This document shows positions 4,573 through 63,337 of a DNA stretch of 64,000 bases, piece by piece. This stretch comes from Lachnospiraceae bacterium A2 (GTDB lineage: Bacteria; Bacillota; Clostridia; Lachnospirales; Lachnospiraceae): assembly GCA_000403315.2 (NCBI GenBank), contig KE159641.1, forward strand, positions 126,501-190,500, written 5' to 3'. The translations under genes and the position numbers were made by a program. The notes beneath the pieces were generated by a model, which was given only the letters and a program-made list of their open reading frames with translations, ran no database searches and was not told where the DNA came from. How positions within the stretch are numbered: position 1 is the first letter of the stretch; each line of letters begins with the position of its first letter.

Positions 4573-5751
4573 CTACAGAAATTCAGGGTTAATGAAGGGG
4601 ACTACAAGCTCCGCCACCTGCCCATCCTTATCAATTCCCCAATAGCCGCTGTAAATGCCGTCCCCCATGCCGCTTGCAAACATTGCCAGCCGGTCCCCTG
4701 TCCCCGGCATCTGCCAGAGGAGGAAATCCCCGCTTTCCCGCTGGAGGGTTGGGTGCTGTTCAAAACTTTTCTGGAAAAAATACGCAAAATATTCAAAATA
4801 TTCATTTTTCCCCGGGTTATCCCGTTTCCAGCCGTTAATAAATTCGCGGTATTTTTCTGCTACCCTTGCATCGGTGAAGCAGGCCAGCCCATTGTCCACG
4901 CCAAAAAATGCCCATACTCCCGGCTTGCCCAAATCTTCTTTGGAGCTGCCCTTCGGCATTGCGATCTCATGGCGGACAGGCTCCTGGCTGCTGACAATCA
5001 GCCTTGCCGCAGCAATCCGCACCCCTACCTGCTCGGAATGGCAGATACACAATTCTACTGGGTAGCTGCCCGCAGGGATTTTTTGCTCCAGCGTCACCAT
5101 GTATTGGCTCCCCAGATACACAATTGGGTCGGAAAGTACAATTTCCCCTGTCGGAAAATCTGCTTTTCCCAAAAGATAAGGTTCCTGTATGCCGCCTTTT
5201 TGGAACAGGCCCCGGAAAAATTCTTCCGGGTAGGTTTCCTTATTTAAAAATTTCAGATTTTTTTCAAAAATTGCCCGGAGGGGCGGCAGTACCTGTTCCC
5301 GGATCTCCTGCCCTGTGGCATTGTCCACAAAATAGGAGCCTGTCCCGTCTGTCCGGAACTCCAAATCTGCCCCAAAGGGCATGTAATAAACATTTACTAC
5401 TGCCGGCTCAATCTTTGCCAGTTCGTTAAAATCCACCACTGCCATATTGTCCGGGTTGTCCACATATTCCTGGGTATCGCTGTCCCCAAAGGCAATCCAG
5501 CCATTCCCCTGCCCGTTGTCATGGCGGAACAGCCATTTCAGCTTGGACGTCCCATTTAAGATGGATTTGCTGACAATGGTAAACCCTGCAGCTTCTATGT
5601 AAGGCTGCGCAGGGGCTTCCGCTGGCTCTTTGGGGGCTGGCCCCGGGGCGTTTCCCTCTTTGGGCGCTTCTGTTTTTGCTTCTGCTTTTTCTGCTTTTAC
5701 TTCTGTTTTTTCTGCTTTCGCTTCTTTTTTCTTCCTATTGAATAATCCCAT
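4573..5751 (-). CDS. DUF2185 / DUF4241-like two-domain protein
   Basis: Unknown function, about 392 residues. The start at 5751 (MGLFNRKKK) is chosen over an in-frame ATG 39 bp upstream because AAAAGGAGT lies 6 bases before it. The N-terminus is a low-complexity Lys/Ala/Glu-rich stretch (residues 5-50). A domain resembling DUF2185 follows (about 60-150; SKSILNGTSKLKWLFRHDNG and GWIAFGDSDTQEYV). The C-terminal half resembles DUF4241 (about 200-390; ends with a G-D-G-x-Y-x-x-Y-W-G type motif). DUF2185 relatives occur among polymorphic-toxin immunity proteins, but no toxin is adjacent. Domain names come from pattern recall only. It lies 41 bp upstream of dnaE on the same strand. Confidence 0.7.
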   Translation of the reverse strand: MGLFNRKKKEAKAEKTEVKAEKAEAKTEAPKEGNAPGPAPKEPAEAPAQPYIEAAGFTIVSKSILNGTSKLKWLFRHDNGQGNGWIAFGDSDTQEYVDNPDNMAVVDFNELAKIEPAVVNVYYMPFGADLEFRTDGTGSYFVDNATGQEIREQVLPPLRAIFEKNLKFLNKETYPEEFFRGLFQKGGIQEPYLLGKADFPTGEIVLSDPIVYLGSQYMVTLEQKIPAGSYPVELCICHSEQVGVRIAAARLIVSSQEPVRHEIAMPKGSSKEDLGKPGVWAFFGVDNGLACFTDARVAEKYREFINGWKRDNPGKNEYFEYFAYFFQKSFEQHPTLQRESGDFLLWQMPGTGDRLAMFASGMGDGIYSGYWGIDKDGQVAELVVPFINPEFL

Positions 5752-5919
5752 GCTTACTCCTTTTATATGGGCAATTCCGTGCATGCCCAACCGTAATTAA
5801 AAACTTCCATTCTATCTTACCCTTAAATGGAAAAAAGTGCAATAAAAAAGTGAGGGGATTGGATACTTTGCAGGCCTTGCGCAGCCCCTGGACAGAATGA
5901 TACGTGATAACTGACGCTG

Positions 5920-5978
5920 GTGTACTGGCACGTTTCTACTTGAGGTAAGTTTGCCTGGACAAAAACATGCCAGTACAC
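5920..5978. repeat. inverted repeat, 11-bp perfect arms
   Basis: Arms GTGTACTGGCA and TGCCAGTACAC are perfect complements separated by 37 bp; further pairing GTTT/AAAC lies just inside. It lies between convergently or independently transcribed units and abuts a family B repeat. Function unknown. Confidence 0.75.
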
Positions 5979-5982
5979 GAAA

Positions 5983-6021
5983 GCGTGTCTGAAAATTGTA
6001 GGAATAAATTTCCAAACACGC
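5983..6021. repeat. family B repeat, short hairpin copy
   Basis: GCGTGTCTGAAAATT at 5983-5997 and AATTTCCAAACACGC at 6007-6021 form a hairpin with a 9-base loop. The end sequence matches the ends of the larger family B elements at 61969-62128 and 63537-63697. Confidence 0.75.
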
Positions 6022-6117
6022 TCCAGCCAAGAAAAGATTTGTGTTTGCCCTGGAAGGCAGAGAACTGCATAAATCAGGCATTATTCATGGAAAGGCTATT
6101 TCCCTATTGGGAATAGT

Positions 6118-6351
6118 TTAGCACCTAACCCAGCTCCCAACCCATTTCCCTGTTGAACGGTTAAACTGGCGCTTATACATCACGCCATTTTCTAATTTGT
6201 ACCTCCACTCCAGCACGTCAGCCAAAGGCATAATGCCCTCTGCGCCATCTTCCATAGCGCAGACCTCGCCAACCGGCACAAACGGCAGGCATGAAAATGC
6301 CATGCATGCAAAAGTTACGGCAATCAACAGTTTTTTTCCCTTATTTCTCAT
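6118..6351 (-). CDS. small secreted protein downstream of BlaR1-type gene
   Basis: 77 residues with a clear N-terminal signal peptide (basic MRNKGKK, hydrophobic core to about residue 32) and a short mature domain with a WRYK...NGVMYKRQFNRSTGKW motif. It starts inside the 3' end of the M56 peptidase gene (11-bp overlap), so it is probably translationally coupled to it. No known domain is recognised. Its position in a BlaI/BlaR1-type operon suggests a role in, or output of, that envelope-sensing circuit; this is inference. Confidence 0.75.
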   Translation of the reverse strand: MRNKGKKLLIAVTFACMAFSCLPFVPVGEVCAMEDGAEGIMPLADVLEWRYKLENGVMYKRQFNRSTGKWVGSWVRC

Positions 6352-7477
6352 TTCGTACCTCCTCTAAATTTTTATAAACTTTAAGTTCCAGCACAGGTTC
6401 TGTAATTTCCATCATTTCGCCATAATAGTCCCCATCCAGGTAAAACTCGTAATAGCCATCCTTTTCAACTAAAAAAGAAGTTTCCGGGTCAGGGCACACA
6501 AAAGTCTTAGGAAGCTCATAATCATAATAAGGCTCCACGACTATAGACACAGATATGGCATACAGCAGAAAAGAACATAGTGTGACTACTGCCCCTTTCC
6601 ACTTTTCTGATTTCCAGCAATTTCCCCAAATGCAACGGAACCTCTGTTTCATTACAGAATTTTTCCTAGGAACAAAGGTAATCAGCAAATCCGCCCCCTT
6701 TTTTCCCCTTTCAGCCTTCATTGACTTCACAATACATTCCAGATAACTGATTTTCTCTTTTTCATTAAAACTGGACGTGAGGGAACAGTCCACATTAATT
6801 TCCATCACGGAGCCCACCAGACTTTTCAGCAAGTAAACTGCCGGGTTCCACCAATAGATGGTGCAGAACACCTCGCAGAACACTTTTATCAGCATATCAT
6901 AATGGTAATAATGCATCATCTCATGCTTTAAGATGTAAGTAAACTCCTCCTCTGTGTAATCCGTTTCCGGCATCAGTATGACAGGCCGTACCAGCCCAAA
7001 AATCGCCGGCGCCTGTACGGACGGCACAAACCGTACTTCAAATTTCCCATCTTTCCCATACTCCTTGTTGATCCTCCGGACAGCATCCTCACAATCATGC
7101 TTCTGGTAACGCGGGCATCTGCGGAGGATACCGGAAAAACGGATATATTCCAATAATAAAATAAGCAGCCGCCCAACCGCCCCTGCTACCCAAAAAGCCA
7201 GCAGAACCTGCCAAACAGGACTTTTATGCCCAAATAGGCCAACCTCCCCAACCATGAAGTTCCTCAGCCCTGTCAGCAGACGCTTGCTAATCAGCGTCAC
7301 AGTAAACCCAAATTCCGCCGGCACTGCCATCCGTACTGCAATTACTGCCAGAAAGATACTGCTATACCTTCCGGAAAATTTCAGCACATTGTCATTTTCC
7401 AAGGCAAGGCATGCCAAGAGAATAAGGATTGTACCGCTTATGGTACAGGACAGCAGGGATGTGGGTGAGAATGACAT
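6341..7477 (-). CDS. M56 family metallopeptidase, BlaR1-like antirepressor
   Basis: 378-residue membrane protein with N-terminal transmembrane helices and the zinc motif HEMMH at residues 185-189, followed by NPAVYLL near 220. BlaR1/MecR1 proteins cleave BlaI-type repressors after sensing beta-lactams. Classical BlaR1 is near 600 residues because of a C-terminal penicillin-binding sensor. Here only about 100 residues follow the peptidase core, with one more transmembrane segment (VVTLCSFLLYAISVSIVV), so the classical sensor is missing. It lies 10 bp downstream of the BlaI-like gene. The signal it senses cannot be deduced. Confidence 0.88.
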   Translation of the reverse strand: MSFSPTSLLSCTISGTILILLACLALENDNVLKFSGRYSSIFLAVIAVRMAVPAEFGFTVTLISKRLLTGLRNFMVGEVGLFGHKSPVWQVLLAFWVAGAVGRLLILLLEYIRFSGILRRCPRYQKHDCEDAVRRINKEYGKDGKFEVRFVPSVQAPAIFGLVRPVILMPETDYTEEEFTYILKHEMMHYYHYDMLIKVFCEVFCTIYWWNPAVYLLKSLVGSVMEINVDCSLTSSFNEKEKISYLECIVKSMKAERGKKGADLLITFVPRKNSVMKQRFRCIWGNCWKSEKWKGAVVTLCSFLLYAISVSIVVEPYYDYELPKTFVCPDPETSFLVEKDGYYEFYLDGDYYGEMMEITEPVLELKVYKNLEEVRNEK

Positions 7478-7487
7478 GGTTCCCTCC

Positions 7488-7883
7488 TTATTCTGACTTT
7501 TTCTTCTGTATAAATTCCTCTAATTCCCCGATAAGCTCCTCGCTGTTTTCCGCACTGTCAAACAGTGCGTTGAAAAGGCTTGCCCTTGACAGGAACTTGT
7601 CAAATGGGTAGATTTCCTTGGTTACAAACTTCACCGCGTATTCTTCCGAGGAAATAATCGGGCGGTAACTCCTTGTCAGGACAGTCCCGCTATGGACGAT
7701 CTTATCTACCTCTATGAAATTCCGCATGAGCAGTTTCTTCAGTACAGACTGCACAGTATTGATGCTCAGGCTTGGCTGAACTCCTGGAATGTCAGAAGCT
7801 ATCATAGGCCTCCCTGCCTCCCAAAGCACGTTCATAACATCCAATTCCCGTTTGCTTAATGCATATTCATCTTTTCTAGCCAA
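7488..7883 (-). CDS. BlaI/MecI/CopY family transcriptional repressor
   Basis: Winged-helix repressor of about 131 residues. The TTG at 7883 (MARKDEYALSKREL...) is chosen because GAGGAGAG lies 6 bases before it. An in-frame ATG 21 bases upstream would place that Shine-Dalgarno sequence inside the coding region. The N-terminal half matches the BlaI fold: ELDVMNVLWEAGRPM, then the recognition-helix region INTVQSVLKKLLMRNFIEV. The C-terminal part should dimerise and contain the site cut by the partner peptidase. It is the first gene of a three-gene operon. Confidence 0.9.
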   Translation of the reverse strand: MARKDEYALSKRELDVMNVLWEAGRPMIASDIPGVQPSLSINTVQSVLKKLLMRNFIEVDKIVHSGTVLTRSYRPIISSEEYAVKFVTKEIYPFDKFLSRASLFNALFDSAENSEELIGELEEFIQKKKSE

Positions 7884-7933
7884 TGTTCTCTCCTCACAAT
7901 ACAATAAATTTACAGCAACGTGTCCTTAAAATA

Positions 7934-7962
7934 ATAATATATCATTTTTCTTCTAGCGTCAA
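7934..7962 (-). promoter_or_regulatory. promoter of the blaI-blaR1-like operon
   Basis: On the minus strand TTGACG (-35, 7957-7962) is followed after 17 bases by TATTAT (-10, 7934-7939), about 50 bp upstream of the TTG start. No clean TACA-TGTA operator was found nearby. Confidence 0.7.
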
Positions 7963-8057
7963 TATAATATCCATAAATCTATCGTTTTTTCCGTAGTTTT
8001 TTGTCACTTTTTTCTATATCCAGCCGTTTTTCCCAGACTGATGTCCAATTACTGCTT

Positions 8058-8783
8058 TTATGATTGTCCCTGTTCCTCGGTAAGCTGTCTTTTCACATGT
8101 GCATACCTTGCCTTTGGTATCGCCAGTTCATCTCCATTCACCAATATTGCTTTATATCTGACTACATTCTTGATATATTTTATATTTACAAGATAACTCT
8201 GATGTATGCGGACAAAACCATGTTCTTCCAACTCTTGTTCCAATGCATTTAATGTCCCATACATGGTATAGGCTTTCAAATCCCCTTCCATAACATGGAA
8301 CTCAAGCTTATGTAACTTGCTCTCAATGTACAACAGCCTATCCAACAGCACTTCTTTTGCCCCTTCCTGAAAAATAAATTCCCTTTTTTCCACAGAAAAG
8401 CCTATGTTATCCATGATGGCATCCATACATTCTCTAAAGGTATCCTCAAAATTAATATCATCTTTTAACAAATACCTTATAATGCCAAATCGATACCCTT
8501 CCAACGAATAATCTACATATGCAGTTACAAATACAATAGGCACTTTCCTGTTTATTTCCCTAATTTTTTTAGCTACCACAATACCATTCATCTTTCCCAT
8601 ATGGATATCTAAAAATATGGCTGAATACCGTACCAAACCAACTCCCAACCCTAGCAGTGCTTCACCAGAATTATAAGTATCTATTTCAAAAACAATACCC
8701 ATTTCTGATAAATAACCTGCTATTACTTTTTTAAATCTTTCTGCAAAAAAACTATCATCGTCGCATACTGCAGCTTTGAACAT
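8058..8783 (-). CDS. LytTR family response regulator
   Basis: 241-residue DNA-binding regulator. Start ATG 8783 is preceded by GAGAGGAAAAGG; an in-frame ORF extends 56 codons further upstream across the promoter and is not credible. The receiver domain spans about residues 1-118, with acidic pocket D8-D10, phosphoacceptor D59 (FLDIHMG) and K107. The LytTR domain spans about 135-236 (FVRIHQSYLVNIKYI). LytTR proteins bind direct repeats of about 9 bp one to two helical turns apart; such repeats lie upstream of its own promoter and of the operon at 9265-11628. No partner histidine kinase is nearby. Confidence 0.92.
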   Translation of the reverse strand: MFKAAVCDDDSFFAERFKKVIAGYLSEMGIVFEIDTYNSGEALLGLGVGLVRYSAIFLDIHMGKMNGIVVAKKIREINRKVPIVFVTAYVDYSLEGYRFGIIRYLLKDDINFEDTFRECMDAIMDNIGFSVEKREFIFQEGAKEVLLDRLLYIESKLHKLEFHVMEGDLKAYTMYGTLNALEQELEEHGFVRIHQSYLVNIKYIKNVVRYKAILVNGDELAIPKARYAHVKRQLTEEQGQS

Positions 8784-8922
8784 CCTTTTCCTCTCCCCTT
8801 CCCTTATAAATATACCAGCAGCTTCTTTCCCCTTACCCTCATGACCCAGCCATTTTGCATTTCGGTATATCTTAATAAAACCTTTAATTTTCCCTACATT
8901 TATAGTAAAGCAATACATTATC

Positions 8923-8951
8923 ATTATATTTCCCTTCTGCGTTTTCGTCAA
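8923..8951 (-). promoter_or_regulatory. near-consensus promoter of the LytTR regulator gene
   Basis: Minus strand TTGACG (-35, 8946-8951), 17-bp spacer, TATAAT (-10, 8923-8928), about 140 bp upstream of the start codon. Confidence 0.75.
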
Positions 8952-8958
8952 GGAAATT

Positions 8959-8990
8959 CCAGAAAATGACCATATTATGCAGAAAACGAC
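8959..8990 (-). promoter_or_regulatory. putative LytTR box pair (autoregulation)
   Basis: Minus strand GTCGTTTTCTGCA (8978-8990) and GTCATTTTCTGG (8959-8970) form a direct repeat with a 20-bp period. It ends 8 bp upstream of the -35 element, the usual placement for an activator of this class. The same repeat occurs three times upstream of the gene at 10045-11628. Confidence 0.65.
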
Positions 8991-9264
8991 ACAGAATTTT
9001 AATCATAACAATTTCATTCCCATTTGCTGAGCCAGATATCCATGCAAACGCGGCACTTGAACCATTTCCCGCAGGAATAAATATCTAACAAAATACTAAC
9101 CGTTGGGGAAAAGTTATGTTTATCAATTGCCAGCAGAATGGCATTTTAAAGAATTCAACAATAACGAATGGCATACAAAGCCACTTTTTGTATTTGCAGT
9201 AAATACATCAAAAAGGACCTGTATGCCATTTATTTCAGAGCCAAATCTTGCGGCCTATCCATGG
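8991..9264. other. stretch without recognised feature
   Basis: Between the regulator promoter and the end of the 258-residue gene. Short reading frames exist but have no ribosome binding site or recognisable product. Confidence 0.5.
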
Positions 9265-10041
9265 TTAGGAAAACAGCTTTCTTGTACTCTCCCTGAAATG
9301 TCCATTTTTATTTAAAATTCCCATAAGTACTTCAACGGCGGCTTTCTTGTTTTGCCTGTTTTGTGATAATGCCAAAAATTCTTCCCGGGCTGATTTCATG
9401 ATTGATCTTGCAGTGTCTTGGTAGGCCTTATCGAAATAATTATAATCTTCCTGTTCTGTTTCCTGATTTTGCTGCTTTTTCTGTTGGGCAAGCCATGCAG
9501 CGCCCCCCTGCCCATACCTCTTATTCGTTTGCTGGCATGTAATGTACCCTTCTACCATTGCCATGCACCGTTCAAATGCTTTATCCAACCCAGCTAAATC
9601 TTCTTCAAGAGTAATTGGACGTTCCTGCAACGGATGATAAGCAACTTGCCGGTTTCCGTTTTCATGTTCCTTTACAATCCTATCGTAGAGGGTTTCATAG
9701 GCGTCCATAATAGATTTCATCAATCCTTCAACATTATCATTTGCATTTCCTTCTTTCCAAGGCCGTGTACTCCTTACCTCTTGCATTGCCCAGAAATGTT
9801 CCATTTCAACGTCATTCGTTACTGAGTAAAGTTCCATATTCTCCGGTTCTGTTCCAAGTCCACTGATCGTTTCCCGTAACGCCTCCATCCCTTCGCTTGA
9901 TATTGATAAATAATCTGCCGCATTCTTAACCGGATGTGATTGTACATCCATCTTAGTTTTAGGTATTGTACACTTTTCTGCCGCATCTTGCATCTGATGT
10001 CTTTGGTAATAGAATGTCTGCTGAACCCTCATGATAACCAC
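9265..10041 (-). CDS. hypothetical protein, DUF6033-like architecture possible
   Basis: 258 residues, no signal peptide or membrane segment, predicted mostly helical and rich in Gln/Glu. The N-terminus (QQTFYYQ...) is followed by an ISSEGMEALRETI segment and a central helical part with KAFERCMAMVEGYI. I do not recognise a domain with confidence. The layout, a disordered N-terminus then helical body in small secretion- or regulator-linked cytosolic proteins, recalls the protein at 36212-36850. It begins 3 bp after the stop of the secreted protein gene upstream, so the two form an operon whose promoter carries LytTR-type boxes. Confidence 0.7.
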   Translation of the reverse strand: MVIMRVQQTFYYQRHQMQDAAEKCTIPKTKMDVQSHPVKNAADYLSISSEGMEALRETISGLGTEPENMELYSVTNDVEMEHFWAMQEVRSTRPWKEGNANDNVEGLMKSIMDAYETLYDRIVKEHENGNRQVAYHPLQERPITLEEDLAGLDKAFERCMAMVEGYITCQQTNKRYGQGGAAWLAQQKKQQNQETEQEDYNYFDKAYQDTARSIMKSAREEFLALSQNRQNKKAAVEVLMGILNKNGHFRESTRKLFS

Positions 10042-10044
10042 CTC

Positions 10045-11628
10045 CTACCAACTGAGTGGTTCTTCCCCATCAAAATATGGGTAATAATGTTTTGTAGAAC
10101 TGCTATATGGCCTTGTAAACAACATGCTATTTGATCCAGTTGCATAATCATAAAAATAATTGATGTTTTGGATATCCACTAACTTTCCTGTGTTTGGATT
10201 TATAAACACTGTCGTAAAATTGAAGTCTTTATACATATTGTTTTCGGCATATGCTCCGCTACAGATACAATGTACTTTATAAAACTTCTCAGAATTCACA
10301 GAATATAGTGACAATTCCAGCACATTCCCTGCTGGCCCAACGCCTTTAGTTCCACTGATATAATTTACCGTATTAGGCATTACCATCCCATAATATGACG
10401 TTTCTTCTGCATCTTCAAACATAAACTGGTTCTGATAAACCTTCGCTCGCAAATTAGAACTGTTTCGCATCGTAATATCATATTTCTGTGTCCCCGCAGA
10501 AGTAGATGCATCAACATGATAGTCATAGTTTATATCTATCGGGTTCCCATTTACATACATATTATTTCCATTTGCATCAGATTGGAAAACAATTTTTGCT
10601 TTCTCATTCACTGTAAAATAAAAAGAACTTGCATTATCTGCTATATTTGCAATTATATTTGCGGTAATCTTATAATCCTGATCTACACTATAAGTTCCAT
10701 CCTTACTATAAACCGCAAAATAATATGTTCCAGCATTAAACTGATACATCCCGTCCTTTTCGGAAATTTTATAAACCTTTGTAGAATTATCTGCCGCCAG
10801 TATACTGAATTTGTAATTTCCCAAATTTTCCGTAATGCGCATTATCACAGGGGATGACAGTGTAAATTTATAATAATCTATGTCATATGGCGTATCAATC
10901 GCCCCTGTAATTTTCTCATTTATGTCAATCTCTGTTGCATTGCTTGCTGTATCATTAATTTCATTCTCTATATCTAGGGTTGCATAAAGCGCAAATCCAT
11001 ATTGCCCGCTCCCTTCATATGCACTAATTGCAAAATAATAAATACCTGTTTCAAGGATATCTGTATAATATTCATACTTGCCTAACCCAGTTCTTGAACT
11101 TCCACCTATCAGATTAAGCTCATAAGTTTCTTGATCCAATTTGAATAAATACAGATCTGCATCTACCTCCGAAACTGTTTCCAACATAATGGATACTTTA
11201 CTGGTCTGTTCTAGTATGAAACCGTACCATCTCATTTCTTTTTCTTGTTCCAAAGTCCCCTGCACAATATTTTCATACTCTACAAGATATGCATTATTGG
11301 GATCTGTATTTTCTGGATTCTCTTGTTCTGCATATAAAGTTGCATTGTTTGGTAAATCTGTAACGTCTGCTGCTTCCCCTTCATATGCCCTATTCATCGT
11401 GTTAGAAATATAAGTTTCACTGCCCCCTTCTATTTGTGCCACATTTTCATATGCATCACTTATATCGTGAATCGCTGTATCCCCCTTAAAGGCTTCTGCC
11501 GGAATATCCCTTTCTTCCTTCTGTAAAATCTCCGAATCCAATTTTTGAGCATCTACCAACAGCGGAGGACAAACCAAGCATATAACCATACATATTGCCA
11601 TTAATCCTTTCCATATTTTTTCCCTCAT
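10045..11628 (-). CDS. secreted protein with PPC-like beta domains
   Basis: 527 residues from ATG 11628, which has AAGGTGG 8 bases upstream; the longer ORF start runs into the operator region. A signal peptide (MREKIWKGLMAICMVICLVCPP, cleavage near VDA) directs export. Residues about 95-330 hold two stretches resembling bacterial pre-peptidase C-terminal domains (TSKVSIMLETVSEVDADLYL; GAIDTPYDIDYYKFTL; YYFAVYSKDGTY). The C-terminal third is rich in Asn, Tyr and Ser and is not recognised. No peptidase catalytic domain is present. It is the first gene of an operon with the 258-residue protein and is probably under LytTR control. Confidence 0.82.
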   Translation of the reverse strand: MREKIWKGLMAICMVICLVCPPLLVDAQKLDSEILQKEERDIPAEAFKGDTAIHDISDAYENVAQIEGGSETYISNTMNRAYEGEAADVTDLPNNATLYAEQENPENTDPNNAYLVEYENIVQGTLEQEKEMRWYGFILEQTSKVSIMLETVSEVDADLYLFKLDQETYELNLIGGSSRTGLGKYEYYTDILETGIYYFAISAYEGSGQYGFALYATLDIENEINDTASNATEIDINEKITGAIDTPYDIDYYKFTLSSPVIMRITENLGNYKFSILAADNSTKVYKISEKDGMYQFNAGTYYFAVYSKDGTYSVDQDYKITANIIANIADNASSFYFTVNEKAKIVFQSDANGNNMYVNGNPIDINYDYHVDASTSAGTQKYDITMRNSSNLRAKVYQNQFMFEDAEETSYYGMVMPNTVNYISGTKGVGPAGNVLELSLYSVNSEKFYKVHCICSGAYAENNMYKDFNFTTVFINPNTGKLVDIQNINYFYDYATGSNSMLFTRPYSSSTKHYYPYFDGEEPLSW

Positions 11629-11694
11629 AAAATATTCCACCTTCCTTATCTTTATATTGTTAGACAGCACCAACAGCTTAAAGGATACCACAGA

Positions 11695-11749
11695 TTCAGA
11701 AAATGGCAATAACCTGTGCAGAAAACAGCTCTTTCTTGCAGAAAACAGC
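11695..11749 (-). promoter_or_regulatory. three LytTR-type direct repeats upstream of secreted-protein operon
   Basis: Minus strand GCTGTTTTCTGCA at 11737-11749 and again at 11717-11729, then GCCATTTTCTGAA at 11695-11707. Periods are 20 and 22 bp. The motif matches the pair at 8959-8990 in front of the LytTR regulator gene. It ends about 67 bp upstream of the start codon. Confidence 0.65.
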
Positions 11750-11893
11750 CAAAAAAATGTGCCTACATAAAAATCAACAGGAAAGAAATTCTATAGAACG
11801 CGAAAACATCACCTTTGGACAGAACCTTACTTTCACCCAAGGGGCTGCTTTCACGTTCCACAAAACAGTACTCTCATGTTGAAGCTATATCTT

Positions 11894-13306
11894 TCAAATC
11901 CCTAAAAACTCCTCATAAATCCCACAGATTTCCGCCGCCCTTGCCGCATCCGGCATCTCGCAGAAAATTCGGAGCAACGGCTCTGTGCCGGAAAACCGGG
12001 CGATGACCCAGCCGCCGTTTTTGAAATAAACCTTGCTGCCATCCAGATAGGAAACATGGTCGATTTCCTCGGAAAGCCCCGGCAGGAGCCTGTCTTCCAT
12101 CAGGAGCCGTTTCATTTCCTCTTTCTTCTCCGGCGTGAACTTGTAGTCCCGTTCTTCCATATGTATTGCCCCACATTCCTCCTGAATGCCCGCCATAATC
12201 TGGGACAGCTTTTCCCCCGTAACTGCAATCATTTCCACAAGGAGGGCGGCTGCATAAATGCCATCCTTGCCGTTAATATGCCCATGGACGGTAAGTCCCC
12301 CGGAGGATTCCCCGCCAAGGACCGCCCCCGTTTCCTTCATTTTGGCAGAGATATGCTTAAAACCTACCGGCACCTCATAGCACTCCTGCCCAAACCGCTT
12401 GGCTACCTTGTCCAGCATATGGGTAGTGGCAATATTCCGTACCACCGGGCCGCTCCAGCCCTTGTATTTCACAAGGTAATAATAAAGCAGCACCAAAATG
12501 TCGTTGGGATGGAGGAAATTCCCCTTATCGTCAATAACCCCTATCCGGTCCGCATCCCCGTCCGTGGCAATCCCAATGTCAAATCCCTTTTCTGCCACAA
12601 AGTTCTGCAGGGAATGGAGGGTGGCCGCGGAAGGCGCAGGGAGCTTGCCGCCAAAGAGCGTGTCATGCCTGTCGTGGATTGTTGCCACCTCGCAGCGGGC
12701 AGTCATTAAGATTACCTTCAGGGAGGTTTCGCTGACCCCATACATAGGGTCTAAGGCCACCTTCAGTCCGGCGTCCCGGATGGCCTTCATGTCCACGGAG
12801 GCAATGATATTGTCCAGATATTCATTTAAGGGATAAATTTCCACAATATAGCCTTCCTGTTTCCCAGTTTCATAGGGGAGCTCTGCCACTTCCCCAGGCT
12901 GTATGTTCCCCATATACTTTTCCAAATCCTTGGTCTGGGCTTCGTCCGCGTCCCGGCCCCCGGCGGTAAATACCTTGATCCCATTATAGATGGCCGGGTT
13001 GTGGCTGGCAGTCACCATCATCCCATAAGGGAACCCGTGCTCCATTACATAAAACATTACCAATGGCGTAGGGGAGGACTTGTTGATTAAATACACTTTG
13101 ATATGGGCTGCTGCAAATACCATTGCCGCCCACTGCATGGCTTCTTTGGAGAGGAACCTGCGGTCGTAGCCCATGACGATTCCCTCTCCTGCTGCGCCCT
13201 CATCTTTCATTTTGTTTACCAATCCCTGCGCCAGAAGCTGTATGTTCTCTTTTGTAAACCCATCCCCAATGACGGCTCTCCAGCCGCCTGTCCCAAATTT
13301 TACCAT
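11894..13306 (-). CDS. phosphoglucomutase/phosphomannomutase family protein
   Basis: Interconverts hexose 1- and 6-phosphates, 470 residues. Start ATG 13306 (MVKFGTGGWR) has AGAGGAGAA upstream; the 54-codon in-frame extension crosses a family B half-repeat. The catalytic phosphoserine is S101 in TASHNP, the metal-binding loop is DGDADR (249-254), the sugar loop is GGESSGG (about 330), and the C-terminal phosphate-binding loop is RFSGTEPLLRIF. The GTGGWR start is typical of this clade. Substrate (glucose or mannose) cannot be fixed from sequence. It is transcribed alone, divergent from the CPBP gene. Confidence 0.93.
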   Translation of the reverse strand: MVKFGTGGWRAVIGDGFTKENIQLLAQGLVNKMKDEGAAGEGIVMGYDRRFLSKEAMQWAAMVFAAAHIKVYLINKSSPTPLVMFYVMEHGFPYGMMVTASHNPAIYNGIKVFTAGGRDADEAQTKDLEKYMGNIQPGEVAELPYETGKQEGYIVEIYPLNEYLDNIIASVDMKAIRDAGLKVALDPMYGVSETSLKVILMTARCEVATIHDRHDTLFGGKLPAPSAATLHSLQNFVAEKGFDIGIATDGDADRIGVIDDKGNFLHPNDILVLLYYYLVKYKGWSGPVVRNIATTHMLDKVAKRFGQECYEVPVGFKHISAKMKETGAVLGGESSGGLTVHGHINGKDGIYAAALLVEMIAVTGEKLSQIMAGIQEECGAIHMEERDYKFTPEKKEEMKRLLMEDRLLPGLSEEIDHVSYLDGSKVYFKNGGWVIARFSGTEPLLRIFCEMPDAARAAEICGIYEEFLGI

Positions 13307-17520: not shown

Positions 17521-17853
17521 TTATTCCTTTATAAATGCCCTGTCTGCCGCAGGAACCCCGGTTTCATCAGACACATACCGTTCCACCCTCATATGCAGGC
17601 CATATTTTTCCCGAAGTTCCGTAATCTTTGCCATCATGGGGGAGGCATGGTGAATATCTAAGGAATGCTGGTCTTTCCAACTGTCGATTAAAAGCACCGT
17701 CTCCTTATCATCCATAGGGAAAAAATATTCATACCTCACGTTTCCATCTTCCGCACGGATGTCGCTGACTACACCGCTTAAGACCATTTCTTCGGCAAAT
17801 TTTTTTGCATTCCCATTCACTCCGCTATAATAGATGTTTACTGTAACTGCCAC
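17521..17853 (-). CDS. antibiotic biosynthesis monooxygenase-like protein
   Basis: 110 residues starting at GTG 17853 with AAGGAGG 8 bases upstream; the longer ORF is translation of a family A repeat and is rejected. Dimeric alpha+beta barrel fold typical of ABM/YgiN putative quinol monooxygenases: VNIYYSG, RYEYFFPMDDKETVLLIDSWKDQHSLDIHHASPMM. Members act on quinones or are of unknown role; no cofactor residues are visible. Downstream (same strand) is the DUF1349 gene. Confidence 0.82.
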   Translation of the reverse strand: MAVTVNIYYSGVNGNAKKFAEEMVLSGVVSDIRAEDGNVRYEYFFPMDDKETVLLIDSWKDQHSLDIHHASPMMAKITELREKYGLHMRVERYVSDETGVPAADRAFIKE

Positions 17854-17900
17854 TCCATTTACCTCCTTCTGCCCTGAAACACAAAACCACATCCTCTGTT

Positions 17901-18053
17901 TATTTCCGCGAGCAACGATCCAAGCAGCCGCGCTTGCGCGGATATTTGGCGAATGCCGCGAGGGTAAGTGCCCTGCGGGTGCAAATACCCCGCCCCTTGG
18001 GGCGGAAAGAACAAGCCAGGCCATGCCCCGTAGCTTGCTGCGGGGTATTTGAC
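17901..18053 (-). repeat. repeat family A, copy B
   Basis: Read on the minus strand it begins GTCAAATACCCCGCAGCAAG and passes through CGGGGCATGGCCTGGC, the hairpin GCCCCAAGGGGC, and the hairpin CCGCGCAAGCGCGG. This copy has about 15 extra bp in the middle compared with the others. It faces copy C (18921-19058) in inverted orientation; the two flank the conjugation-gene remnants. Confidence 0.85.
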
Positions 18054-18125
18054 TCATATATCTTTCCCATATACAATATTTTCGCAAATGTTTTGTAATC
18101 CACCTTTTCCCAATCTACCGTGTCA

Positions 18126-18428: not shown

Positions 18429-18812
18429 TCATTTCCCGCCACAAGCGGTTTCGCTGTTCCTGCCTCCCCTGTCACAAAGGATTCCGGCATCTTCCCCTGA
18501 CGAATCCGCCGTTTCATCTTCCATATCAAAGGCATATTCCAGTTCCAGGCCTGACTCCATATCTTCATTCAGGCGCTCCCTCTGCTCCTGTTCATCCAAA
18601 TCCATAAACCGCTTCTCCATATCCACCTGCCCCAGCAGCATGAAGTTCTCATAAGGTGTCCCGTCCCCGTCTGCGGTCTGGAAAAATACCGGATGTTTGA
18701 ACAGATTCTATTTATTGTCCAGTACCGGCTCAAACCCACGGATAAAGATAAGGCATTTCTTATTGTCCATCTTCCTCACTTCATCAGGTGCCATAATCTC
18801 TTTGCCACATTG
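18429..18812 (-). pseudogene. VirD4/TraG-like conjugative coupling protein, C-terminal fragment
   Basis: Between stops on the minus strand: IMAPDEVRKMDNKKCLIFIRG, EPVLDNK, then an in-frame TAG (18708-18710), then NLFKHPVFFQTADGDGTPYE, FMLLGQVDMEKRFMDL. This matches the C-terminus of VirD4/TraG-type ATPases of Tn1549-like conjugative transposons. Only the last 120 codons or so remain and an amber codon interrupts them. The ATPase core is absent, so this is a relic of an integrative conjugative element. Confidence 0.65.
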
Positions 18813-18920
18813 TCAAGTGAAGCATTCATTCTTTTTGCTTTTCATACACGGAATCTTGTAAATGTTCTATAACTATGCTAAACTGAATGCAACAACAAAC
18901 GGGAAATTGTACTGGGAGAA

Positions 18921-19058
18921 GTCAAATACCCCGCAGCAAGCTACGGGGCATGGCCTGGCTTGTTCTTTCCGCCCCAAGGGGCGGGATATTCAACCCTCGC
19001 GGCATTCGCCAAATATCCGCGCAAGCGCGGCTGCTTGGATCCTTGCCCGCGGAAATAA
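18921..19058 (+). repeat. repeat family A, copy C
   Basis: About 138 bp beginning GTCAAATACCCCGCAGCAAG and ending near GCGGAAATAAA. It contains hairpins CCCCGCAGC..GCTACGGGG, CCGCCCCAAGGGGCGG and CCGCGCAAGCGCGG. It ends about 110 bp upstream of the gene at 19171. Confidence 0.85.
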
Positions 19059-19170
19059 AATTTTTCTGGGAACAGATGATGATTGGCAAAAAATTCAATA
19101 TTTAAGATAATTAGGATTCAAAAAACAGAAAATTTATTGATGTCGTGTTTCGTAAGAAATGGAGGAAAAA

Positions 19171-35498: not shown

Positions 35499-36203
35499 TT
35501 AATGGTTCGCAAATACATCTTCCCGCACCCGTTTCCGGTTTGCCTTGCTGATGGACAGCACCATCCCATTCCTTAATTCCACAGTATCGTAGGTATAGCG
35601 GTAGACATGCTCCTTATTTACAACATACGATTGATGGATAAGAAGGAAACTGCCTGGAAGCCTTGGAAGGATATCCTTCATCCTTCCATAAAACTCCCAT
35701 TGGCCTTGGGCTGCCACCACCTTTATTTTCCTCCTCTCACTGACAAAACAGAGAATGTCCCGGAAAGGGATTGCATAAAGGTCTTTCCCTGCCTGAAATT
35801 CAAATTTCCCTGCGCCCCGTTCCAGCACTTTTATGGCGCGTCCCAAGGTTTCGTCTATTTGGGTCTGTAAAATGGGCTTCACAAGGAAATCAAGGGGCTG
35901 TGTCTTAAATAGCTGCATGGCATAGGAAGGTTTTGCCGAAATATAGACAATCTGCATGGCCCAGTTTTCCAGCCGGTTCCGTATGAAATCCCCTGCTTGG
36001 ATTCCTGTCATCTCAAACAGGGCAATATCCAGAAATAAAATATCCAAATCATTATGTTCTGCCAGATAGCTGCAAAGCTTCTCCGCGGTATACCAGACCA
36101 TGGTTTCCACCGAAATCTTTTTTTCTTTTGCATACTGCTGTACCATCTCTTCCAAAGAAGCACAGATACCTTTTCCATCGTCGCATATCCCAATATTGTA
36201 CAT
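35499..36203 (-). CDS. LytTR response regulator, AgrA-like
   Basis: 234 residues. Receiver domain about 1-120 with D8/D9, phosphoacceptor D59 (LFLDIALFEMTG) and Lys in FLVKPI; LytTR domain about 135-230 (LLIHQSYVVNKEHVYRY, ISKANRKRVRE). It is the last gene of a run beginning at agrD, ending 2 bp before a terminator. LytTR-type direct repeats lie upstream of agrD, so it most likely activates its own operon when phosphorylated by AgrC. The gene starts 8 bp after the DUF6033-like gene. Confidence 0.9.
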   Translation of the reverse strand: MYNIGICDDGKGICASLEEMVQQYAKEKKISVETMVWYTAEKLCSYLAEHNDLDILFLDIALFEMTGIQAGDFIRNRLENWAMQIVYISAKPSYAMQLFKTQPLDFLVKPILQTQIDETLGRAIKVLERGAGKFEFQAGKDLYAIPFRDILCFVSERRKIKVVAAQGQWEFYGRMKDILPRLPGSFLLIHQSYVVNKEHVYRYTYDTVELRNGMVLSISKANRKRVREDVFANH

Positions 36204-36211
36204 AGGAACGC

Positions 36212-36850
36212 CTATTCAATGCCCAGCTTCTGCAGCTTCCTTCCCCGCTCCTCTATGGCATTTAAATATTGCTCCAGCAAGGAATCTTTTATATTTTGGA
36301 AATTTATTTTTATTTGGCTCTGGGCGGATTCCTGTTCCCGCATTTCTTTTATCTCTTCTTCGGTAGAGAAAGGCATTTTGGAGTTCACCAAGGACATCTG
36401 GGGCCGTGCTCCCCCATCCTCAATTTCCACACAGACATAGGGATATCCATCCCTTCCAGCTTGGCTTTCATACATGGAATATGTATCTCTGGCGTCTTGG
36501 ATTGTGCCCTTTACGTGTTTTTCATACTCTGGGTCCTGCTGCATTTTTTTGAGTACGGAAATGTCAATCTGAATACTGCACTGGCCCGGACTGCCAAAAC
36601 TCTCCCCCATCTGGTTCATGCTGCCGCCATACCCTAGGACAGAACCACCAGAAGCCTTCTGCGCTGCCTTGTCCCCCAGACGGAATGTAACGCCTTGGAA
36701 CTCCCGGCATAATGCTTGGTAATATTCCATGGGGGACTGGGGTTTGGGGCTGTTTTCCGCTTGGATGCCAAAGGATGTTTCCGTTTTGGGGATATTGGCG
36801 GCCTGCGGCTGGTAAGCTGTGAAACTGGCTGTTTGTGCAATTTTCATCAT
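36212..36850 (-). CDS. DUF6033-like protein in agr operon
   Basis: 212 residues, no signal peptide. N-terminal part is Pro/Gln-rich and probably disordered (QTASFTAYQPQAANIPKTET). Residues about 45-205 form a folded part with SPMEYYQALCREFQGVTFRL, CSIQIDISVLKKMQQDPEYE and YPYVCVEIEDGGARPQMSLV. The order recalls DUF6033 proteins of Lachnospiraceae, whose function is unknown. It lies between the secreted Cys-rich protein and the response regulator, so it is expected to be under quorum control. Confidence 0.65.
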   Translation of the reverse strand: MMKIAQTASFTAYQPQAANIPKTETSFGIQAENSPKPQSPMEYYQALCREFQGVTFRLGDKAAQKASGGSVLGYGGSMNQMGESFGSPGQCSIQIDISVLKKMQQDPEYEKHVKGTIQDARDTYSMYESQAGRDGYPYVCVEIEDGGARPQMSLVNSKMPFSTEEEIKEMREQESAQSQIKINFQNIKDSLLEQYLNAIEERGRKLQKLGIE

Positions 36851-36951: not shown

Positions 36952-37335
36952 CTAATAATCCCTCTTGCCATTTGTGTAATGCTCCGTCGGCCTATTTGGG
37001 TATAGCTTCATATAAGTCCGGTCTGGCACATCAATATGGCTACAACTTGAGCTATTACAAGTAAAATAATACATATCGCTTGTATACAAATACATATGAT
37101 ATTCCCCAGCAGGCACTACTTTTCCACATGGTTCACAATACTGCCCACTCTGAGGTGTCTTCGTTGTCCATCCAAAATTAGCTTCATATCCAAAATTAGT
37201 ATTTAAGCGCCCACACCGTGGACATGGCTCTGTCTTTGAGGCTGCAAATGCTGATATTGATAATGTTAACATTAATGCCAAACACACAACGGCTGATGCT
37301 ACATTTTTTGCAATCTTACAATTCACTCTCTTCAT
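36952..37335 (-). CDS. secreted Cys-rich protein in agr operon
   Basis: 127 residues with a signal peptide (KRVNCKIAKNVASAVVCLAL, cleavage near AFAA, about residue 33). The mature part has CPRCGRL, YCEPCGK and TCNSSSCSH, that is paired Cys residues that could bind zinc or form disulfides. No known family. It starts 14 bp after agrB, so it is probably co-expressed with the autoinducer genes and may be an exported output of the circuit. Confidence 0.8.
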   Translation of the reverse strand: MKRVNCKIAKNVASAVVCLALMLTLSISAFAASKTEPCPRCGRLNTNFGYEANFGWTTKTPQSGQYCEPCGKVVPAGEYHMYLYTSDMYYFTCNSSSCSHIDVPDRTYMKLYPNRPTEHYTNGKRDY

Positions 37336-37349
37336 AAAATAACTACCTC

Positions 37350-37928
37350 CTACAAATGTTTTTTTCGTTCATACTTCAGTTTTCCTGTAAAAAGAGATAT
37401 ACTGATGATAAAGAAACACATTGCAATTATGATGAGTACCTTTTTACATTTAACATATAATGCCATACCGAATAACATAATTTCAGTTACTAAAACCAGT
37501 TTTGCCCGTTTCTGATATACTCTGTATTCTAAAGAATCTAAAGGCTTATTAATGCTATCGACTGGAACCAACAAAAATATAACGCTTGAACAAAATAATG
37601 TAACTGCAACTAATTCCCTTACTTTCCATTCTAATTTGAAAAAAATTATATATGAAATTATCAGAATCCCTACTGATATGTATGAACATCTCTCTTTTGT
37701 TTCTGCATGGAATCCACCTGAATATTTTCTTAGAGGAAAAATTAGACACCAAAAAATAAAGCTGTCCCTAAGATGCCCAAAGGCTCCTCCTATGACAAGA
37801 ACCAGAAGAAAACCTAACACATTATTTCCTAAGGTATCTAATCCATATCTTATGATATCAACTTCTTCTGGCAATATAATGCCATCCTTAAGAAATTTTT
37901 CTGTCATTTTTTCTGCATACTTCAACAT
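37350..37928 (-). CDS. agrB: AgrB-type autoinducer peptide processing protease
   Basis: 192-residue integral membrane cysteine protease that cleaves and cyclises the AgrD precursor. The segment RKYSGGFHAETKERC contains the expected catalytic His (GGFHA) and a nearby Cys (about 79-84), with several transmembrane helices around. Its ATG overlaps the agrD stop by 7 bp, so the two are translationally coupled. Family length is about 190, so it appears complete. Confidence 0.93.
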   Translation of the reverse strand: MLKYAEKMTEKFLKDGIILPEEVDIIRYGLDTLGNNVLGFLLVLVIGGAFGHLRDSFIFWCLIFPLRKYSGGFHAETKERCSYISVGILIISYIIFFKLEWKVRELVAVTLFCSSVIFLLVPVDSINKPLDSLEYRVYQKRAKLVLVTEIMLFGMALYVKCKKVLIIIAMCFFIISISLFTGKLKYERKKHL

Positions 37929-38068
37929 TTTCGCAATTTTTTAATTTCTGGTGGTTCCTTTGATTGAAACCCCCAAAGAGAACAGGTCGAATTTGACTCT
38001 ATGACAGCAAATTCCTTTGCTATTTTTACAATTGCCTTTTTAACATATACTGCAATCGCTTGTTTCAT
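37922..38068 (-). CDS. agrD: AgrD-type cyclic lactone autoinducer precursor
   Basis: 48 residues. ATG 38068 has GGGGG 6 bases upstream. The layout is an amphipathic N-terminal leader (MKQAIAVYVKKAIVKIAKEF), a core with a Cys at about residue 29 (ESNSTCSLWGF), and an acidic/Pro tail SKEPPEIKKL. This is the AgrD plan: a thiolactone ring formed by the Cys with the C-terminus after AgrB cleavage. The ring probably closes within CSLWGF but the exact cut is not certain. Confidence 0.88.
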   Translation of the reverse strand: MKQAIAVYVKKAIVKIAKEFAVIESNSTCSLWGFQSKEPPEIKKLRKC

Positions 38069-38163: not shown

Positions 38164-39453
38164 TTATACATTTTCTTCCGGCAAATACATCATTATTTTC
38201 ACATGGAATTGCTCCCCTTCCGCCCAAACTTCCATCACCCCTTGGTGCTTTTCTACAGCTTTCCGGACACTTTGTAGGCCAAATCCATGGTGTCCTTGGT
38301 TTTTTGTTGTTTTTAAAGTGTATTCCCCGGAAAAGCTGTTCACGATTTCTATTTTCAAGATGCCTTTTTGAAATTCTACCACAGCATGGAGCATTTTCTC
38401 TTCTGTCTGCTGGGCGGCTTCTATGGCATTTTCCAGTAAATTTCCCAGAACCATATTCACGTCAAAGGTATGGCATATTTTTTCTGGGAGATGCACTTTT
38501 ACTTGAACATCCCAAAGAACCTGATTGGTTTTTTGCAGCATATAGTTTAAAATACTGTCAACCTCTGTATTTCCAGAAGATACAATTTCATTGGGATTTT
38601 GCATAAATTCTGCCATGCTATCAATATATTCTTCTATTGCAAGGAACTCTCCTTTTATCGCCATCAATTTTAATTCATTCAGATGGTGCTTGATGTCATG
38701 TTTCAATAAATTTACTTTTTCTTCACTTTGCTGGATGGCCTGAACCTGATTTGCATAGGATTGGACAGTCTGTTTCAGCATCTCATTTTCATATTTGTGG
38801 CTGAATGACTTTAGCATCATATTATAGAGGTAGAGTACCAGAAAATTGATAACCAAAAATCCAATACACACAATTACCAAACCTTTTTCAACATAATCTA
38901 TATACATTAAAAGTCCGACTATTATAATAGCAGAAATTGGAACAATTGTCATTACAAATGGCAAGCTTTCTCCCATATGCACCCCTTTCCTGCCATTCAC
39001 AATTTTTTCTGTCATCAGTTCACATACAAGAAAAAGAAATATTGTTAGTATTTCGTAAAACTGGTTAAATTCTTTTCCATATTCATACTTTATAAAAGAA
39101 AGGACAACAATACTGTCACATGCAATATTAATGCACTATATGGAACAAGCCACAAAAGAAATTGTTTTCCACGATTTATGATACATGGCTGCGAGCAAGC
39201 TAATTCCCACCAAATTAGTAGTAAAATTCATCCATGCTGAATGAAAGACTAAATAGCAGCTTGTATTTACCAAGAAAAATATAACAAAAAGCATCCTTCT
39301 TAAAAATTCCGCACGGGATATTCCAAACACACATTTTCCATTGTGGGCAAAAGCACCTTGTTCCCTGTCTTCCCCTGCAAATATCTTAATATAGCGGTAA
39401 ATCAAATATACCCGGAACATATTTGTCAGTATGCAAATGGCAGTGTTTACCAT
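38164..39453 (-). pseudogene. agrC: AgrC-type sensor histidine kinase with in-frame amber codon
   Basis: Frame of 430 codons: a TAG at 39136-39138 (codon 106) is the only interruption. Residues 1-105 and those after it read on in the same frame as transmembrane helices (FLRRMLFVIFFLVNTSCYLV; IACDSIVVLSFIKYEY; ILTIFLFLVCELM; TIVPISAIIIVGLLMYI). The kinase is GHKL type: H252 in LLKHDIKHHLNEL and N-box VLGNLLENAIEAAQ, ending HHGFGLQSVRKAV. The C-terminal part could also be made alone from ATG 39015 or 38976, giving a kinase lacking part of the sensor. Its position before agrD and agrB identifies the peptide receptor. Ribosome binding site AAGGGGAG. Confidence 0.85.
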
Positions 39454-62327: not shown

Positions 62328-62466
62328 GTCAAATACCCCGCAGCAAGCTACGGGGCATGGCCTGGCTTGTTCTTTCCGCCCCAAGGGGCTGGGTATTCAA
62401 CCCTCGCGGCATTCGCCAAATATCCGCGCAAGCGCGGCTGCTTGGCTCATTGCTCGCAGAAATAAA
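62328..62466 (+). repeat. repeat family A, copy E, inserted in an ATPase gene
   Basis: GTCAAATACCCCGCAGCAAG to about GCAGAAATAAAG. It interrupts the AAA ATPase frame just after KEQIYFI, showing that these elements can insert into genes. Confidence 0.87.
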
Positions 62467-63337
62467 GTAAATCTGTTCTTTCATATAATTCCTCAGATCC
62501 AGATGCCTGACGTTATGGGTAGTAAAAACAAATTGCCCATGGTGCTGCTTTCCATGGATAAACGAAAGCACACGGTCCATTTCGTCTGCAAATACTACTT
62601 TATTGCAGTATACAACTTTAAAAACCTGAACTGCCCATGCAAAAAATTCCCTGGCTCCGCTGGAATCATTCCTAAGCTCCCGCAAAAAAATGCTGCCGTC
62701 TTTCTTCTTCCTCCTGATGGCAGATTTCGAAAACGGGGCATCACTGTCTAACTCAATGCCAACGATGCTGCAGTCCACCATACGGAAAATTTCAAAAAAC
62801 CGTGTATCACCCAATATATGGAAATCTTCTTCTCTTTTCATGGATTTGTATATATCATAATTCACCACATTTGTTTCTGGGAGAAGGCTGCTTTTTACCC
62901 ATGCTGCAAACCTTATTGCGTGCCCATTGCCAAGTATCGCCAGCTTGGTAAGAAAGAGGCCGACCTGCCTTTTGCCATCCATAGCTTTCCTTAGCAGTTC
63001 TCCCATCCCCTCCTCAAAGCCGGGAATTTCCAAGCTATAACTTACTTCTGCTTCCGTCTTGCATTGGCTCTCTCCCGGGCACTGGTATGCATCCTTATCA
63101 CATCCCAGCACGCATCTTACCCTGCCGCTGACATAACCTGCTGGTACTCCTGGAGGTACTGCCCCTTATAGCTCAGTTCTTCCCTGACAATGCCAATAAA
63201 ATCTATTTCTAAATGGTATAAATAAAAATATTTCCCATCCAGCAATACTTCCAATTCAAAGCTTTGGCGTGTACTATCTTCTTTCCCGCAATTCCTTTTT
63301 AGGTTATTGGCATGTACCATGTTTCGGTATGCCCTTA

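What the first reader, a model, noticed from the sequence alone, without database searches (positions are those of the whole stretch)
38164..39453. Single amber codon interrupts an otherwise intact AgrC receptor kinase
The 430-codon frame is open on both sides of a TAG at 39136-39138, and the protein reads on smoothly as membrane helices and a full GHKL kinase. agrD, agrB and the response regulator look intact. The strain may be quorum-deaf, may make a truncated kinase from a later ATG (39015 or 38976), or may read through. The VirD4 fragment at 18708 also carries a TAG in frame. Loss of agrC is a familiar adaptation in Staphylococcus agr systems (established for that genus; extension here is inference).
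Basis: partly seen in the sequence, partly recalled or inferred. Interest (0 to 1): 0.8.

Follow-up and report, generated by a model that had tools for sequence, protein, structure and literature searches.

The report
Broken quorum-sensing receptor in gut bacterium
A stop signal cuts a bacterial cell-to-cell communication receptor in two, most likely switching it off, and two further copies of this signalling system in the same genome are damaged too, each in a different way.

Summary
The TAG is real: codon 106 of a 430-codon AgrC frame (39453-38164, minus), at 39138-39136. The frame is otherwise open and kinase motifs are kept. Orthologues in G023 and (from a contig edge on) G019 are single frames; G025 is broken elsewhere. 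Recoding is unsupported: no CUA among 37 anticodon classes read, RF1 intact, no PylS over cut-off, 9 of 43 window genes end in TAG, agrB included. Best reading: a fairly recent nonsense mutation that leaves the receptor deaf while signal, exporter and regulator genes stay open. It is not isolated: 0 of 3 agrB-bearing loci of this genome is complete, against 34 of 39 (4 not, 1 undetermined) in other genomes of the genus. A start at 38976 has a good ribosome-binding site, so a shortened kinase is possible; 39015 is unlikely. In passing: a near-identical 13-kb agr plus radical-SAM island in nine genomes lost agrB and peptide-making genes by at least four different deletions.

The parts
39136..39453 (-). 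agrC, part before the stop: 105 aa of the membrane sensor half, ending at the TAG
39136..39138 (-). in-frame TAG, codon 106
38164..39135 (-). agrC, part after the stop: 323 open codons with the last membrane segments, the H-box and the GHKL ATPase domain (PF14501), then TAA
38974..38990 (-). possible restart: ATG at 38976 (codon 160) with a Shine-Dalgarno-like stretch, -8.2 kcal/mol
37922..38068 (-). agrD, 48-aa cyclic autoinducer precursor, open
37350..37928 (-). agrB, 192-aa AgrD-processing membrane protease, open; its own stop codon is TAG
36952..37335 (-). 127-aa protein with a signal-peptide-like start (read by eye), no family over cut-off; candidate output gene
36212..36850 (-). DUF6033 protein (PF19498), candidate output gene
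35499..36203 (-). agrA-type response regulator (receiver plus LytTR), open, about 60% identical to the regulator next to the orthologous agrC in G023 and G025, but at the other end of the cluster

Best explanation
This is an agr quorum-sensing locus of a Lachnospiraceae bacterium whose receptor kinase gene agrC carries a single, fairly recent nonsense mutation. AgrD is presumably still processed by AgrB and exported as a cyclic peptide, but the full-length receptor is not made, so the cell cannot pass this signal to its LytTR regulator: it may talk but is deaf. Shown: the stop, the openness of the rest, single-frame orthologues, no amber decoder found, and broken sibling loci. Inferred: loss of signalling, continued signal production, and relaxed or adverse selection on agr in this lineage.
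For: One stop in the frame with the kinase motifs kept. A tree puts the window gene with G023, G019 and G025 (support 99/99); G023 has a 427-aa single frame and G019 a single frame from the contig edge on. TAG is a working stop: RF1 530.6 bits (cut-off 423), 9 of 43 window genes end in TAG, no CUA anticodon read. Sibling loci are broken: in L070 agrB is split by a transposon with perfect 16-bp terminal inverted repeats; in L071 agrC lacks profile positions 214-272 (H-box included) and agrB is in two frames. L069 has an open agrC, an AgrD remnant and no agrB found. Complete agrB-agrC sets: 0 of 3 here, 34 of 39 elsewhere in the genus; Fisher p 0.003 to 0.005, not corrected for related loci. Simulated random mutation with 10% indels leaves the frame this clean in 26% of trials after 10 hits and 1.9% after 30.
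Against: One assembly only; no reads and no second strain of the species could be examined. A good ribosome-binding site at 38976 would allow a 270-aa kinase. The clean downstream frame could mean that it is still under selection rather than newly broken. The tRNA list lacks tRNA-Ile(GAU), so the set found is incomplete and a suppressor could be missed. The sibling comparison judges each locus alone: the window's open agrB could serve other loci in trans, and the open receptors of L068, L069 and L070 might hear its peptide, so the whole cell need not be deaf.
Confidence: 0.75

Rival explanations
1. The gene still makes a shortened kinase from ATG 38976: two membrane segments plus the histidine and ATPase domains, without most of the peptide sensor, giving peptide-independent signalling.
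For: Shine-Dalgarno energy -8.2 kcal/mol against -8.5 at the native start and a median of -9.1 for 25 window genes; hydropathy peaks at codons 167-185 and 191-209 lie after it. H-box and GHKL motifs are kept.
Against: About 9% of 800 random minus-strand ATGs reach -7 or better, and 14 in-frame start codons were scored in codons 101-260. Of seven orthologues, four could be lined up at the spot: L072, L074 and L180 have no comparable start; L073 has an ATG there with a weaker site (-5.5); L177, L178 and L179 could not be lined up by the motif used. The consensus scan found no more promoter-like sites than shuffles gave (15 against 15.1).
Confidence: 0.13
2. The TAG is a sequencing or assembly error in a working gene.
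For: No reads are available; a single base would be enough.
Against: It is a substitution-type stop in an otherwise clean frame in a 10-contig assembly. Two other agr lesions in the same genome (a transposon, about 60 missing codons) are not of the kind base-calling errors make, though they do not bear on this base.
Confidence: 0.08
3. The TAG is decoded, by a suppressor tRNA, pyrrolysine or programmed read-through, and a full-length AgrC is made.
For: The frame reads on cleanly. Three weak tRNA-like Rfam matches have no readable anticodon arm, and the tRNA list is incomplete.
Against: 60 tRNA matches, 37 anticodon classes read, none CUA; PylS model best 26.1 bits against a cut-off of 178; RF1 intact; TAG ends 9 of 43 window genes; no orthologue examined has a stop there.
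Confidence: 0.03

Closest known systems
agr quorum sensing (agrBDCA) of Bacillota, type system Staphylococcus aureus (recalled)
   Same: AgrB protease, AgrD cyclic-peptide precursor, polytopic GHKL kinase, LytTR regulator
   Different: agrC is cut by TAG; the regulator sits at the far end of the cluster; DUF6033 and a 127-aa protein lie between agrB and the regulator
agr-defective variants of Staphylococcus aureus (PMC7479134; abstract sentence and passages seen)
   Same: independent agr lesions in natural isolates, premature stops among them
   Different: the passages seen report premature stops in agrA and amino-acid changes in AgrC; here agrC carries the stop, and two sibling loci of the same commensal-type genome are hit in other ways
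agr loci of Clostridioides difficile (agr1 with agrBD only; agr3 also in phage phiCDHM1; PMC5225093, passages seen)
   Same: partial agr sets exist in the same class of bacteria
   Different: those are described as locus types; here complete orthologous sets exist in L177 and L180, so loss of parts is the simpler reading

Membership tests
agr quorum-sensing locus | AgrB-family membrane protease | tested here: met
   PF04647 107.1 bits, cut-off 23; His and Cys seven residues apart in the sequence, a spacing recalled for S. aureus AgrB
agr quorum-sensing locus | AgrD cyclic autoinducer precursor beside agrB | tested here: met
   TIGR04223 26.3 bits, cut-off 19
agr quorum-sensing locus | full-length polytopic GHKL receptor kinase | tested here: not met
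   frame interrupted at codon 106; both halves match an AgrC profile
agr quorum-sensing locus | LytTR response regulator | tested here: met
   PF04397 52.1 and PF00072 36.2 bits, over cut-off, but displaced
loss-of-function pseudogene | lesion absent from orthologues | tested here: met
   single frames in G023, G019 (from contig edge), L177, L178, L179, L180; G025 broken elsewhere
loss-of-function pseudogene | no active product | not testable with these tools
   needs protein or reporter data; a restart at 38976 is possible
recoded or read-through gene | tRNA or system that decodes TAG | tested here: not met
   caveat: tRNA-Ile(GAU) is also absent from the list, so the set is incomplete
recoded or read-through gene | stop conserved at the site in orthologues | tested here: not met

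The most novel reading that the evidence does not exclude
Gut Lachnospiraceae are under recurrent selection to drop out of agr signalling. The window is one case of a general pattern in which receptor, signal or exporter is lost separately, also after recent horizontal spread, as in the 13-kb agr-radical-SAM peptide island that lost agrB and its peptide-making genes at least four times while the regulator and transporter genes stayed in place.
Probability: 0.35. Interest if true: 0.65.

Novelty: new member of a known kind. Interest (0 to 1): 0.4.

Why it matters
Loss of agr is a familiar adaptation in staphylococci; the five literature searches made here (listings only, three of them capped) showed no paper on it in gut Lachnospiraceae. 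A genome whose three agrB-bearing loci are each broken in a different way while most relatives' loci are complete, and a recently spread agr peptide island trimmed repeatedly, offer natural replicates for asking what selects against quorum sensing in the gut.

Tried and rejected
The single-protein scan of named genomes with the window AgrC found no relative; the scan with a three-row alignment gave 39 loci. That the gene is normally split was rejected by single-frame orthologues. Amber suppression was rejected. A duplication scar that would explain the displaced regulator was looked for and not found; the flanks share only short chance-level matches. Phage or plasmid carriage: 52 phage records match the kinase, each under 60% identity, so none is a near source; the island of L186 has no plasmid match in near mode. 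Structure prediction was not used because it would not decide between the explanations. The first tree held one out-of-frame row of mine (L077), with its stops deleted by the script; it was redone with the right frame and a check for stops. Literature: searches were seen as listings (7 of 7, 15 of 19, 12 of 67, 9 of 9 and 10 of 13 papers shown); of two papers, PMC5225093 and PMC7479134, I saw passages.

Full report
Observation. On the minus strand, 39453-38164 is a 430-codon frame with one inner stop, TAG at 39138-39136, codon 106. The read-through protein carries PF14501 in its second half (E 3.3e-18). A profile built from four whole AgrC proteins matches the part before the stop at positions 2-92 and the part after it at 95-419 of 421, so the halves are one gene. 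Histidine 252, asparagine 338 and glycines 390 and 392 are invariant in an eight-row alignment; that these are the phospho-acceptor, N-box and G-box residues is recalled. agrD (TIGR04223, 26.3 bits), agrB (PF04647, 107.1 bits) and a receiver-LytTR regulator are open.

Host. The window lies in contig 6 of a 5.24-Mb, 10-contig genome, 93.45% complete. So the window comes from an unnamed Lachnospiraceae of the same genus; that it lives in the gut is inferred from its relatives.

Is TAG read as an amino acid? Rfam finds 60 tRNA matches. I gave ARAGORN 50 loci that cover all 60 places; 37 anticodon classes were read, none CUA. Three low-scoring matches have no readable anticodon arm. tRNA-Ile(GAU) is absent too, so the set is incomplete. 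RF1 scores 530.6 bits (cut-off 423.25). PylS reaches 26.1 bits against a cut-off of 178.15. Of 43 window genes that I picked as plausible, 9 end in TAG, agrB among them. Recoding is therefore unlikely.

Orthologues. An IQ-TREE tree of 21 AgrC rows puts the window gene with G023, G019 and G025 (99/99), and these with L177, L178, L179 and L180 (100/99) (the rows of G025 and L071 were partial). State of these eight loci: L177 and L180 have regulator, agrC, agrD and agrB all open. L178, L179 and G023 have regulator and agrC, with no agrD or agrB found beside them. G019 has agrC open from the contig edge on, agrD, and an agrB lacking its first half. G025 has agrC broken into two frames and no agrD or agrB found beside it before the contig ends. 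The window has agrC broken and the rest open. So 2 of 8 are complete, and 0 of the 4 in the window's genus. G023 and G025 do have other agrB genes elsewhere. In these relatives the regulator directly precedes agrC where the contig shows it; in the window it lies after DUF6033 at the far end. No scar was found.

The rest of the genome. The AgrB model finds four places, forming three loci. Besides the window: L070 (contig 5, about 320-325 kb) has open regulator, agrC and agrD, but agrB is split by a DDE transposase gene lying between perfect 16-bp terminal inverted repeats. L071 (about 356-359 kb) has an open regulator and agrD, but agrC lacks profile positions 214-272, which include the H-box, and agrB is in two frames. 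Two further regulator-agrC pairs lack agrB: L069, with an AgrD remnant, and L068, whose nearest kin in the tree (L076, L077) also showed no agrB or agrD. These are verdicts locus by locus; help in trans from the window's open agrB, or hearing by another open receptor, is not excluded.

Control. The same AgrB search over 29 genomes of the genus gives 43 rows: 3 in this genome and 40 elsewhere, forming 39 loci. Of the 39, 38 were fetched and the other is G019 (L073). agrB is one frame in 35 of 38 (not L165, L168, L169). An AgrC-type kinase in one frame is present somewhere in the fetched stretch in 36 of 38; L168 has none and in L159 it is cut by the fetched end. Complete by both: 34 of 39, with 4 not complete (L165, L168, L169, G019) and 1 undetermined (L159). 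In this genome: 0 of 3. Fisher p is 0.003, or 0.005 if the undetermined one is counted as broken. Caveats: at least three pairs of loci (L135/L136, L144/L145, L163/L164) give equal scores and are not independent; I did not check that each kinase is the partner of its agrB; loci that lost agrB entirely are invisible to this search; many of the genomes are fragmented assemblies.

Age. Random mutation of the frame with 10% indels, each indel counted as a break, leaves no second lesion in 51% of trials after 5 hits, 26% after 10 and 1.9% after 30. The break is thus recent, or the remainder is still under selection.

Could a shortened kinase be made? Anti-Shine-Dalgarno pairing is -8.5 kcal/mol at the native start, +0.4 at 39015 and -8.2 at 38976, with a median of -9.1 for 25 window genes and -3.0 for 800 random minus-strand ATGs, 9% of which reach -7. 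A product from 38976 would have two membrane segments, the H-box and GHKL. Of seven orthologues, L072, L074 and L180 lack a comparable start at that spot, L073 has an ATG with a weaker site (-5.5), and L177, L178 and L179 could not be lined up by the motif used. So this is possible, but not conserved.

Mechanism. From established knowledge of agr (recalled), AgrB cuts and cyclises AgrD, the exported peptide binds the AgrC membrane domain, and AgrC phosphorylates the LytTR regulator. With the stop in the sensor half, the receptor step fails and the rest may run on. That is inference from sequence; no activity was measured.

In passing. Nine genomes (L181-L188 and L190, the reference L186 included) share a 13.2-kb stretch that, where present, is 99.8-100% identical (L183 only from position 1599 on): regulator, agrC, agrD, agrB, a 42-aa reading frame without family match, three radical-SAM proteins (best NCBIfam matches PapB-type ranthipeptide maturase and YydG-type epimerase, each below its curated cut-off) and an ABC transporter ATPase. 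Against L186, L181 and L184 are complete and L188 has an insertion of about 66 bases in agrC. L182, L183, L185 with L187, and L190 lack pieces with four different sets of end points. All five lose agrB wholly or in part, the 42-aa frame and the first two radical-SAM genes, and all keep the stretch from 11979 on, which holds the transporter genes. L190 also loses the end of agrC. L185 has small frame breaks in both the regulator and the transporter ATPase, which may be base-calling errors. This fits repeated loss of producing and signalling genes after recent spread; a mutation hot spot is not excluded.

Verdict. Observation confirmed; a familiar kind of event (loss of agr) in a little-studied host, made more interesting by the damage to its sibling loci and by the repeated losses around it.

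Noticed in passing
L181-L188, L190 (L186 as reference, 5100-13200): A 99.8-100% identical agr plus radical-SAM peptide island in nine Lachnospiraceae genomes; 5 of 9 copies lost agrB wholly or in part (some also agrD), a 42-aa frame and the first two radical-SAM genes by at least four different deletions, keeping the regulator and transporter genes (both frame-broken in L185).
   Followed up: partly
L070:6308-7893: DDE transposon with perfect 16-bp terminal inverted repeats inside agrB of another agr locus of the same genome.
   Followed up: partly
window 35499-36203: The agrA-type regulator sits at the opposite end of the cluster from its place in relatives; no duplication scar found.
   Followed up: partly
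window 17521-18087, 18862-19110, 62329-63111: A dispersed repeat whose reading frames give similar short peptides appears at three places at least, by eye from the ORF lists.
   Followed up: no
L092:255-348 (genome C1:410054-410147): tRNA-like Rfam match (39.6 bits) with a good acceptor and T arm but a disrupted anticodon arm; ARAGORN does not call it.
   Followed up: partly
window 18432-18812: Remnant of a VirD4-like conjugation gene with an in-frame TAG; only the piece before the stop matches a family.
   Followed up: partly
L135/L136 and L144/L145: Two agr loci give identical profile scores in genomes G024 and G023, which may mean recent transfer; the DNA was not compared.
   Followed up: no
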